Shown piece after piece: positions 36,213-38,594 of a DNA stretch of 45,087 nt. The position numbers and the translations under genes are program-made. The stretch comes from Thermoleophilia bacterium (lineage in GTDB: Bacteria > Actinomycetota > Thermoleophilia > Gaiellales > Gaiellaceae), in assembly GCA_026785685.1 (NCBI GenBank), contig JAJAZN010000238.1, positions 1 to 45,087 of the forward strand, read 5' to 3'. Under the pieces are notes generated by a model that was given only the letters and a program-made list of their open reading frames with translations, made no database searches and was not told the origin of the DNA. Each line of letters begins with the position of its first letter. Position 1 is the stretch's first letter.

Positions 36213-36821
36213 ATGGCTGACGATACCCGGGCACCCGTTGTCACAGCCCTTCGCGCTCGCGGGAAGGATCGCGTCGAGATAGATCTCGACGGTCACCTAT
36301 GGCGCGTCGTGCCGACGGAGGCAGTGTTCGCGGTCTCTCTCTCGGTTGGGCGTGTACTCGATCGTACGACCGCCCGCGCGCTCGGGCGCGAGCTGCGGAA
36401 ACTCGAGGCGCAGGCTCTGGCGCTGCGGGCGCTGCGGGCGCGTGATCACACAGTCGCGTCACTCGAGCGACGACTCACGGAGCGGGGTGCGCCCCCCAGC
36501 CTTCGGCGTGAGACGCTGGATGCAGTACAGCGCGCCGGACTCGTCGACGATCACCGCTTCGCGCGCAAACGTTCCAGCCTCCTCGCGAAACGAGGGGCCG
36601 GGAACGAGCTGATCGTCGACGACCTCGAGCGGCAGGGCGTCGCGGACGACGACATCCGCGCCGCGCTCGTGGCACTCGAGCCCGAGTCGGCCCGGGCTAT
36701 GCGGATCGCCGAAGTGCGGGGAAGGACGCCAAAGACAGCGCGCTACCTTGCCTCGAAGGGCTTTTCCGAGGAGTCGCTCGAAGCGCTCGTTGCAGACCTG
36801 TCCGCGGACGCTATAGACTAG
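36213..36821 (+). CDS. recX: RecX regulatory protein
   Basis: 202 aa. RecX caps RecA filaments and inhibits strand exchange. It is built of three-helix repeats: 'ALALRALRARDHTVASLERR', 'AVQRAGLVDDHRFARKRSSL' and 'TPKTARYLASKGFSEESLEA'; the region 'GNELIVDDLERQGVADDDIR' is the second repeat. An N-terminal ~60-residue beta-like extension ('EIDLDGHLWRVVPTEAVFAV') is commonly present in gram-positive RecX. The gene lies 21 nt after recA and is probably co-transcribed, hence SOS-controlled. Its 3' end contains a likely promoter for rny. Confidence 0.9.
   Translation: MADDTRAPVVTALRARGKDRVEIDLDGHLWRVVPTEAVFAVSLSVGRVLDRTTARALGRELRKLEAQALALRALRARDHTVASLERRLTERGAPPSLRRETLDAVQRAGLVDDHRFARKRSSLLAKRGAGNELIVDDLERQGVADDDIRAALVALEPESARAMRIAEVRGRTPKTARYLASKGFSEESLEALVADLSADAID
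36790..36819 (+). promoter_or_regulatory. putative promoter for rny inside the recX 3' end
   Basis: TTGCAG (36790-36795) with TATAGA at 16 bp or TAGACT at 18 bp. Initiation would fall near 36825, just after the recX stop, leaving a ~235-nt leader before rny. Confidence 0.5.
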
Positions 36822-37061
36822 GAGTGCTTCATCCGAACATTTGACCTGCACAGAGCGCATTCCCGAAAACCGGCTGATCCAGTGACCACTCACCATCTGA
36901 CCTCATCGAGCGTTGCGACCACCGCAGACCCGCGGAGGGAAGCCCGACCGAGATAGACCCTGCTGTACGACCGGTTGACCGGGAGACCGCCAGTGCAGGC
37001 GGTGTCCGGATGTGAGCGACCGCGGCGATAGCCGCGTGACAACCCCCACCCGGGAGCGTCC
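36822..37061 (+). promoter_or_regulatory. long structured 5' leader candidate of rny
   Basis: 240 nt without a plausible gene. It holds hairpins ACCGCC-AGTGCA-GGCGGT (near 36986-37003), CGCGGC-GATA-GCCGCG (near 37021-37036), CCGC/GCGG (near 36922-36935) and CCGG-TTGA-CCGG (36971-36982). CCTGC near 36960 could pair with GCAGG near 36995 in competition with the first hairpin. 'GGGAGCG' before the ATG is the ribosome-binding site. Not matched to a known riboswitch by eye. Autoregulation of RNase Y through leader cleavage is a possible role; this is inference. Confidence 0.4.
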
Positions 37062-38594
37062 ATGCTCACAGTCGTCGCAGCCCTGATCGGAATCACAGTC
37101 GGAGCCATCGGGCTGTGGGTGTGGCTTCGCACAGTGAGCACGTCACGCCTTCGACTGGCCGAGGATCAACGACGCGCGCTTCTCACCGACACCGAGCGCG
37201 AGGCCGAGACCACTCGCCGGGAGGCGCAGATCGAAGCTCGCGAGCACGCCGTGCAGCTGCGGGCAGACCTCGAAAGTGAGTTGCAAGAGTCTCGAGTGCA
37301 GATGGCTAAAGCCGAGGCGCGGATGCAGCAACAGGAGTCCGAGATCGAGGTCAAGAGCGAGGAGCTCACGCACCGCGAGCAGGGCATTACCGATCGTGAG
37401 ATCCACACCAAGCAGCTCCAGGAGCAGCTCAAGGCGGGGAGCGACCAGATGCTGCGGGAGCTCGAGCGCGTCGGTGGCCTGACGCTCGGTGACGCGCGCG
37501 CGCAGTTGCTCGAACGGTCAGAGGATCTCGTCCGACACGAGCTCGCGCGGACAGTGAGGCAACTCGACGAGGAGGCTCGCACGGATGCGAAGCGAAAGGC
37601 GCGCGCTCTCGTCGCAGACGCTCTCCAACGCGTCGCCGCGAGCCATACCGCCGAAACGACCGTCAGTGTCGTCGAGCTGGCATCGGACGACATGAAAGGT
37701 CGCATCATCGGGCGAGAAGGGCGCAACATTCGCGCGCTCGAGCACCTCACCGGCGTGGACTTCATCATCGACGATACCCCGCACGCGGTCGTGCTCTCCT
37801 CCTTCGACGGTCTCCGGCGAGAGCTCGCGCGGATGACGCTTCAGAAGCTGATCGAGGACGGACGGATCCATCCCGCCCGAATCGAGGAGATGTACTACCT
37901 CTCCAAGGCGGAGCTCGAGGATCAGGTGCGCCTGGCGGGCGAACAGGCCGTCTTCGAGGCGAACTGCGGCGAGTTCCACGAGGAGCTGGTGAACATCCTC
38001 GGGCGATTGCGGTATCGCACGAGCTACGGTCAGAACGTCCTCAAGCACACCCTGGAAGTCGTGCACCTTGCGGGAATCATGGCCGCCGAACTCGGAGCGT
38101 CCGTAAAGACGGCTCGTCGGGCGGCCCTGCTTCACGACATCGGGAAGGCGATGACGCACGAGGTGGAGGGGACGCATGCAGCCGTCTCGGGCATGCTTGC
38201 CCGCCGCTACGGTGAGTCGGAGGGCGTTGTTCATGCCGTCGAGGCGCATCACTACGAGGTGCAGCCGCAGACGGTCGAGGCGGTTCTCCTTATCTCGGCC
38301 GACGCGATCTCCGCCTCGCGGCCCGGTGCCCGCGGTGAAAGCCTCGAGCACTACATCAAGAGGCTCTCGTCGCTCGAGGAAATCGCAACGGCGAAGCCCG
38401 GCGTCGCGAAGGCCTATGCGCTTCAGGCAGGACGGGAGATCCGCGTCATCGTCGAGCCGACCGAAGTGGACGACGACGCAGCAGCCCTCCTCTCGCACGA
38501 GATTGCGCGTCAGATCGAAGATCAGCTCGAGTACCCCGGCCAGGTCAAGGTGATCGTGATCCGCGAAAGCCGTGCAATCGAGATCGCACACTAG
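37062..38594 (+). CDS. rny: ribonuclease Y
   Basis: 510 aa membrane-anchored endoribonuclease that initiates mRNA decay. One N-terminal membrane helix ('VVAALIGITVGAIGLWVWL'), a long coiled coil (~25-195), a KH domain ('MKGRIIGREGRNIRALEHLT', ~205-265), and an HD domain with 'ARRAALLHDIGKAMTHEVEG' near residue 355 and 'VHAVEAHHYEVQPQTVEAVL'. All expected domains are complete. The start is the ATG after GGGAG. It follows recA-recX as in many actinobacteria lacking RNase E at this locus. It and RNase J would form a Firmicutes-like decay system. Confidence 0.96.
   Translation: MLTVVAALIGITVGAIGLWVWLRTVSTSRLRLAEDQRRALLTDTEREAETTRREAQIEAREHAVQLRADLESELQESRVQMAKAEARMQQQESEIEVKSEELTHREQGITDREIHTKQLQEQLKAGSDQMLRELERVGGLTLGDARAQLLERSEDLVRHELARTVRQLDEEARTDAKRKARALVADALQRVAASHTAETTVSVVELASDDMKGRIIGREGRNIRALEHLTGVDFIIDDTPHAVVLSSFDGLRRELARMTLQKLIEDGRIHPARIEEMYYLSKAELEDQVRLAGEQAVFEANCGEFHEELVNILGRLRYRTSYGQNVLKHTLEVVHLAGIMAAELGASVKTARRAALLHDIGKAMTHEVEGTHAAVSGMLARRYGESEGVVHAVEAHHYEVQPQTVEAVLLISADAISASRPGARGESLEHYIKRLSSLEEIATAKPGVAKAYALQAGREIRVIVEPTEVDDDAAALLSHEIARQIEDQLEYPGQVKVIVIRESRAIEIAH

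What the first reader, a model, noticed from the sequence alone, without database searches (positions are those of the whole stretch)
36822..37061. 240-nt structured leader between recX and rny
A promoter-like pair in recX (TTGCAG / TATAGA) would create a long leader with several stable hairpins and an alternative CCTGC/GCAGG pairing. RNases often autoregulate through their leaders, and this one fits no riboswitch I recognise.
Basis: partly seen in the sequence, partly recalled or inferred. Interest (0 to 1): 0.5.

Follow-up and report, generated by a model that had tools for sequence, protein, structure and literature searches.

The report
Conserved structured leader of RNase Y
The 240 bases between recX and the gene for the RNA-cutting enzyme RNase Y are an evolutionarily conserved, folded messenger-RNA leader with its own promoter; it is in no RNA family library, it disappears whenever the RNase Y gene is lost, and it probably sets how much RNase Y the cell makes.

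Summary
The window is from a Thermoleophilia-like MAG. About 60 distinct recX-rny spacers from the same family are 190-290 nt long and nearly all begin with the same promoter at the end of recX (window TTGCAG 36790-36795 and TAGACT 36814-36819, not TATAGA). The leader folds better than shuffles (window z -3.1). A structure-blind alignment of 29 leaders supports a long-range closing helix (P1) and a downstream hairpin (H2) by compensatory changes. Rfam has no match. Genomes that lost rny lost the leader too. The promoter/5'-arm signature occurs once per genome, only before rny, with one off-target hit in 199 genomes. A genuine 6S RNA lies elsewhere.

The best explanation is a cis-acting leader controlling RNase Y level, probably by autoregulation through its AU-rich 5' end, as in B. 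subtilis; that step is inferred. A new feature is a short reading frame in the apical region (GTG 36882 to TAG 36956): start and in-frame stop are kept across genera, but it has no Shine-Dalgarno sequence and no amino-acid constraint. General sequestration of the rny ribosome-binding site was tested and not supported. No transcript has been mapped.

The parts
36790..36795 (+). -35 element TTGCAG, inside the 3' end of recX
   Evidence: TTG kept at this fixed distance in 84-89% (per base) of 62 distinct leaders of the family; the position was not used to select them
36814..36819 (+). -10 element TAGACT (TAGGAT/TACGAT in relatives), 18-nt spacer, overlapping the recX stop
   Evidence: the hexamer list was part of the search, so its own conservation is partly circular
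36822..37061 (+). structured 5' leader of rny; RNA start inferred about 5-8 nt after the -10, not mapped
   Evidence: fold z -3.10; conserved length and architecture
36825..36835 (+). P1, 5' strand (TGCTTCATCCG)
   Evidence: pairs with 37007-37018; helix 1 (88.9-92.9% of cells paired, 3-4 pairs with changes on both sides)
37007..37018 (+). P1, 3' strand (CGGATG-T-GAGCG, one bulged base)
36845..36851 (+). P2, 5' strand CCTGCAC; CCTGC invariant in the 29-leader alignment
36993..36999 (+). P2, 3' strand GTGCAGG (partner of CCTGCAC)
36860..36873 (+). P3, 5' strand (TTCCCG..AACCGG; TTTCCGAATCG in relatives)
   Evidence: helix 3, 69% of cells paired (weakest helix)
36971..36985 (+). P3, 3' strand (CCGGTT..CGGGAG; CGATTCGGGA in relatives)
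36882..36956 (+). candidate short upstream reading frame, GTG to TAG, 24 codons (MTTHHLTSSSVATTADPRREARPR), in the apical region
   Evidence: start and in-frame stop kept in 51 of 56 leaders against 17 and 20 in the other frames, genus level p = 0.0003; no SD; no coding substitution pattern
37021..37036 (+). H2 hairpin CGCGGC-GATA-GCCGCG, after P1; no T run follows
   Evidence: 93.5% of cells paired, 6 of 7 pairs with compensatory changes
37052..37056 (+). Shine-Dalgarno GGGAG of rny
   Evidence: an SD was found in 66 of 70 leaders
37062..38594 (+). rny, RNase Y, the gene that the leader precedes
   Evidence: Pfam PF12072, HD, KH

Best explanation
This is the 5' untranslated leader of the rny mRNA, transcribed from its own promoter at the end of recX, and it acts in cis to set the level of RNase Y. 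Shown by sequence: a conserved promoter, a conserved length, a long-range closing helix (P1, with P2 and a weaker P3) that brings the AU-rich first 50 nt close to the ribosome-binding region, a second GC-rich hairpin, and strict coupling to the presence of rny. Inferred: when free RNase Y is plentiful it cuts the U-rich single-stranded loops of the first 50 nt next to helices. The mRNA is then degraded and rny output falls, as shown for the 164-nt rny leader of B. subtilis. The closing helix would protect the mRNA or present the cut site. Ribosome traffic on the short upstream frame may tune this.
For: Spacer of about 190-290 nt kept in the family, whereas recX is followed within about 30-110 nt by another gene where rny is absent. 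Promoter conserved in nearly every leader. Covariation on a structure-blind alignment: 90.9% of cells paired against 35-46% when slid, 26 cells changed on both sides against 5.5 in shuffles. Native 5' arms pair better with their own 3' half than with that of other genera, 13 of 16 genera, p = 0.0027; control with the middle region p = 0.58. MFE z mean -1.5 over 70 leaders. Signature once per genome at rny in 18 genomes, one off-target hit, reversed-pattern control zero in 199 genomes. Rny-less genomes of the same family, confirmed by PF12072, have no leader. First 50 nt 50% AU against 27% beyond nt 130. B. subtilis precedent with cleavages mainly in the first 50 nt (PMC10303841).
Against: No transcript start, expression or cleavage data for any of these organisms. 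P2 and P3 are less well supported than P1 and H2, and the closing stem is not visible in about ten leaders with a shorter architecture or in genus g15. These are GC-rich MAG sequences in which stable folds are common. RNase Y prefers AU-rich single strands, and this leader has only short ones.
Confidence: 0.6

Rival explanations
1. Ribosome-mediated control: the short upstream frame is translated, and where ribosomes start, pause or stop decides which helices form (P3 against alternatives). This sets translation of rny here, and transcription past a terminator in related orders. The peptide sequence itself would not matter.
For: The first ATG/GTG of the apical region is followed by an in-frame stop in 51 of 56 leaders (17 and 20 in the other frames), genus level p = 0.0003. 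ORF with start and stop in 89% of leaders against 25% in shuffles. Lengths vary between genera (mostly 11-30 codons) yet stay in frame. GGAGG inside the region in 47% against 13%. In L015, L016 and L019 the leader ends in an intrinsic terminator before rny.
Against: No Shine-Dalgarno before any of 56 starts. No codon-position or conservative-substitution signal in seven genera. Shared ancestry inflates counts. A structural motif such as NTGA could mimic a start codon.
Confidence: 0.25
2. Independent regulatory RNA of the 6S or Ms1 type that happens to lie upstream of rny.
For: Long hairpin-like closing stem with a large apical loop, own promoter, about 230 nt; in other orders the RNA ends in an intrinsic terminator before rny.
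Against: A probable real 6S RNA (RF00013, E 1.9e-7) lies elsewhere in the same genome and in relatives. No Rfam match here. The RNA is lost whenever rny is lost. No terminator in the window's leader.
Confidence: 0.07
3. Metabolite- or protein-binding switch acting by hiding the rny Shine-Dalgarno.
For: Perfect TCCTAC(G)/(C)GTAGGA hairpins over the SD in L118, L124, L127, L129, L140, L143 and L145, and short CCTCC/GGAGG hairpins in some others; invariant CCTGC could be a binding site.
Against: Across 66 leaders the SD is slightly more accessible than with shuffled leaders (0.37 against 0.30). No riboswitch family matches. The leader precedes rny only and no metabolic gene.
Confidence: 0.08

Closest known systems
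B. subtilis rny 5' UTR autoregulation (Korobeinikova et al. 2023, PMC10303841)
   Same: Same gene; long leader (164 nt there, about 236 nt here); AU-rich first 50 nt; gene product is an endonuclease that cuts its own leader.
   Different: No conserved long-range helix or upstream frame is described in the passages read; the B. subtilis leader is AU-rich; here nothing has been measured and no sequence similarity was shown.
rne5, RNase E 5' UTR element (Rfam RF00040) of gammaproteobacteria
   Same: Structured long leader of the main decay-initiating endonuclease gene, used for autoregulation (from knowledge; the contrast is discussed in PMC10303841).
   Different: No Rfam match; different enzyme family and different structure.
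6S RNA (RF00013) and actinobacterial Ms1
   Same: About 200 nt or more, long closing stem and large internal region.
   Different: The genome has a separate 6S; this RNA is tied to rny. Ms1 is described next to HAD-hydrolase genes (PMC9130861).
uORF-bearing structured leaders, e.g. Corynebacterium ilvB-II (PMC10272879, abstract start only)
   Same: Conserved leader region with a short frame upstream of the gene.
   Different: Here no conservation of the peptide and no SD before the frame.

Membership tests
cis-acting mRNA leader of rny | Own promoter upstream, conserved in relatives | tested here: met
cis-acting mRNA leader of rny | Conserved secondary structure with compensatory changes | tested here: met
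   (P1 and H2 strong, P2 and P3 weaker)
cis-acting mRNA leader of rny | Present only with the gene | tested here: met
cis-acting mRNA leader of rny | Changes expression of rny | not testable with these tools
   needs reporter fusions
rne5 (RF00040) | Covariance-model match | tested here: not met
   no Rfam match at gathering score; nothing but a chance snoRNA at E up to 10
6S RNA (RF00013) | Covariance-model match at this place | tested here: not met
   the only match in G000 is at C319:3479-3637
RNase Y autoregulation as in B. subtilis | AU-rich 5' 50 nt of the leader | tested here: met
   50% AU against 27%; relative enrichment only, 76% in B. subtilis
RNase Y autoregulation as in B. subtilis | RNase Y cleavage in the leader | not testable with these tools
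   needs RNase Y depletion and 5'-end mapping
leader-peptide attenuator | Short frame with start and in-frame stop kept across genera | tested here: met
leader-peptide attenuator | Selection on the peptide sequence | tested here: not met
leader-peptide attenuator | Ribosome-binding site before the frame | tested here: not met
   0 of 56
SD-sequestering riboswitch | SD more paired than chance across the family | tested here: not met
   a subgroup has perfect hairpins over the SD

The most novel reading that the evidence does not exclude
RNase Y synthesis in these bacteria is governed by a structured leader that reads translation itself: ribosomes on an SD-less upstream frame of irrelevant peptide sequence, closed in by a long-range helix, decide whether the leader is exposed to RNase Y and whether rny is expressed. 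That would couple the RNA-decay enzyme to ribosome availability. In sister orders the corresponding leader ends in a terminator.
Probability: 0.22. Interest if true: 0.68.

Novelty: new member of a known kind. Interest (0 to 1): 0.5.

Why it matters
How bacteria set the amount of their main mRNA-cutting enzyme is known in detail for E. coli (RNase E) and partly for B. subtilis (RNase Y). A conserved, structured leader on rny in a deep actinomycetotal lineage whose genomes encode both RNase Y and RNase E/G would show that such control arose repeatedly. It supplies an RNA family absent from Rfam, with testable helices and a natural knock-out series, because some genera lost gene and leader together.

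Tried and rejected
6S RNA: rejected, the genome has its own. Known riboswitch or Rfam family: none. General SD sequestration: rejected by accessibility test. Intrinsic terminator in the window's leader: none. A start-stop element ATGTGA in the 3' strand of P1: present in the window but lost in relatives (GTGTGA, GTGGGC, ATGAGC), so dropped. Selection on the upstream peptide: not found. RNAalifold on the whole MAFFT alignment found only H2, because the apical region does not align; P1 was therefore counted on that same alignment with a named structure. Covariance model R1, built from the two arms with the apical region left out, was too weak for genome searches (best E 0.002; matches mostly to the 3' half), so its lists were not used as evidence. 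Duplex swap tests on P1 alone or P2 alone were not significant at genus level; only the combined arm was.

Full report
Check of the observation. The spacer 36822-37061 lies exactly between recX (36213-36821) and rny (37062-38594); Pfam confirms both. As RNA it folds at -92.6 kcal/mol, z -3.10 against dinucleotide shuffles. Rfam has no family there, at gathering score or at E up to 10 apart from a chance snoRNA match.

Relatives. The window is contig 238 of a MAG whose nearest public rny loci are Thermoleophilia and unclassified Actinomycetota MAGs. I fetched rny upstream regions from about 75 genomes of the same family. recX is followed by a 190-290 nt spacer and rny in nearly all of them. Sixty-two distinct spacers were aligned. 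They share a promoter at the recX end: TTG at a fixed place (84-89% per base) and TAGGAT/TACGAT/TAGACT 18 nt after the -35 hexamer. The -10 hexamer list was used in the search, so its conservation is partly circular; the -35 was not used. The start of the RNA (about 36825) is inferred.

Structure. After the promoter come GCTTCATCCG, an invariant CCTGC and a TTTCCGAA block. The 3' part of the leader holds the complements (CGGATG-T-GAGC, GTGCAGG or variants, CGATTCGG), then a GC-rich hairpin H2, GACAACC and the Shine-Dalgarno. On MAFFT alignment A1 (29 leaders, no structure used) P1 and H2 together give 90.9% paired cells against 35-46% for slid partners, and 26 doubly changed cells against 5.5 in shuffles. 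On the arms alone (18 leaders, chosen because their arms aligned) four helices give 83% against 31-41%. A swap test independent of alignment shows that 5' arms pair better with their own 3' half than with those of other genera (42 of 50 leaders, 13 of 16 genera, p = 0.0027), while pairing with the middle region shows no such preference (p = 0.58). The 50 leaders of that test were those with the long architecture; over all 70 leaders the genus-level result was not significant (p = 0.18). P1 or P2 alone did not reach significance at genus level. About ten leaders, from L118 to L145, and genus g15 lack the long closing stem by this measure. Seven leaders of that shorter form instead carry a perfect TCCTAC(G)/(C)GTAGGA hairpin over the rny SD. 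Over all 66 leaders with an SD the site is not more hidden than in shuffled leaders, so SD sequestration is not the general rule.

Tied to rny. A pattern made of the promoter and 5' arm was scanned over 199 genomes of the class. It hit 18 genomes of the family, each once and in the rny leader, plus one off-target hit in G037; the reversed-pattern control gave none. In genus g11, part of g20 and single members of g39 and g18, rny is absent (RNase_Y_N 0 of 8). In the eight of those genomes whose recX end could be read cleanly, recX is followed within about 30-110 nt by miaB or other genes and the leader is gone. Genus g20 contains both states. This points to a cis-acting element. A probable 6S RNA sits elsewhere in the window's genome (C319:3479-3637, E 1.9e-7, slightly under the gathering score) and in relatives, so the 6S idea is rejected.

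A short upstream frame. In most leaders a GTG, ATG or TTG about 50-75 nt after the -10 opens a frame of about 11-30 codons that closes before nt 155. In the window it is GTG 36882 to TAG 36956. Starts with in-frame stops occur in 89% of leaders against 25% of shuffles. Taking simply the first ATG/GTG, the in-frame stop is present in 51 of 56, and in 17 and 20 for the other two frames; at genus level 17 of 22 favour the frame, p = 0.0003. Two results weigh against a normal leader peptide: no substitution pattern of coding sequence in seven genera, and no SD-like sequence before any of the 56 starts. In family f2 of the same order a frame at the matching place can also be read (ATG at -165 in L195, TTG or ATG in L193, L194 and L197). 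My reading is that the frame is probably real as a start-stop unit while the peptide is irrelevant; translation is unproven.

Other orders of the class. In L015, L016 and L019 the region before rny has a TTGAC(A/T)-N18-TA promoter, about 215-240 nt of leader and then an intrinsic terminator before rny. Members of f3 have short hairpin leaders. Leader control of rny may therefore be old in the class and realised in different ways; homology of these forms was not shown.

Mechanism. B. subtilis RNase Y autoregulates by cutting its own mRNA, mainly in the AU-rich first 50 nt of a 164-nt leader and in the first codons (PMC10303841). Here the first 50 nt are 50% AU against 27% beyond nt 130 and form U-rich internal loops beside helices. 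I therefore favour RNase Y-dependent turnover, gated by the closing helix, as the mechanism. Shown: promoter, structure, coupling to rny. Inferred: cleavage, autoregulation, any role of the upstream frame.

Verdict. A real, conserved structured leader family not in Rfam, of a known functional kind (leaders of RNA-decay endonuclease genes). Confidence is about 0.85 that it is a functional cis-acting leader and 0.6 for the whole statement with autoregulation. The paper library covers only open-licence papers, so an earlier description elsewhere cannot be excluded.

Noticed in passing
G000:C319:3479-3637 (locus L234), outside the window: Probable 6S RNA of this lineage, below Rfam's gathering score (43.6 against 46.4 bits) in the window's genome but above it in three relatives.
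   Followed up: partly
L015 2142-2404, L016 2149-2414, L019 2005-2290: Sigma-70-type promoter, about 215-240 nt leader and intrinsic terminator directly upstream of rny in other Thermoleophilia-like genomes: a possible transcription attenuator for RNase Y.
   Followed up: partly
genera g11, g20 (part), G061, G023; loci L154-L165: rny has been lost in several lineages, together with its leader; every genome tested, with or without rny, has RNase E/G (one only a fragment).
   Followed up: partly
36934-36938 in the window, and the apical region of relatives: GGAGG inside the apical region in 47% of leaders against 13% in shuffles; it falls in several reading frames, so Arg codons do not explain it. 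Possible partner of CCTCC near the rny SD, or an internal SD.
   Followed up: no
L195, L196 (family f2), about 155-175 nt before rny: CCTGCAAATGCAGG hairpin followed by AGGAG and an ATG frame in the rny leader: a variant with a normal SD before a short frame.
   Followed up: partly
L200-L207 (family f3, genus g36): Short (about 85 nt) rny leaders with one hairpin, followed by a T run in L202.
   Followed up: no
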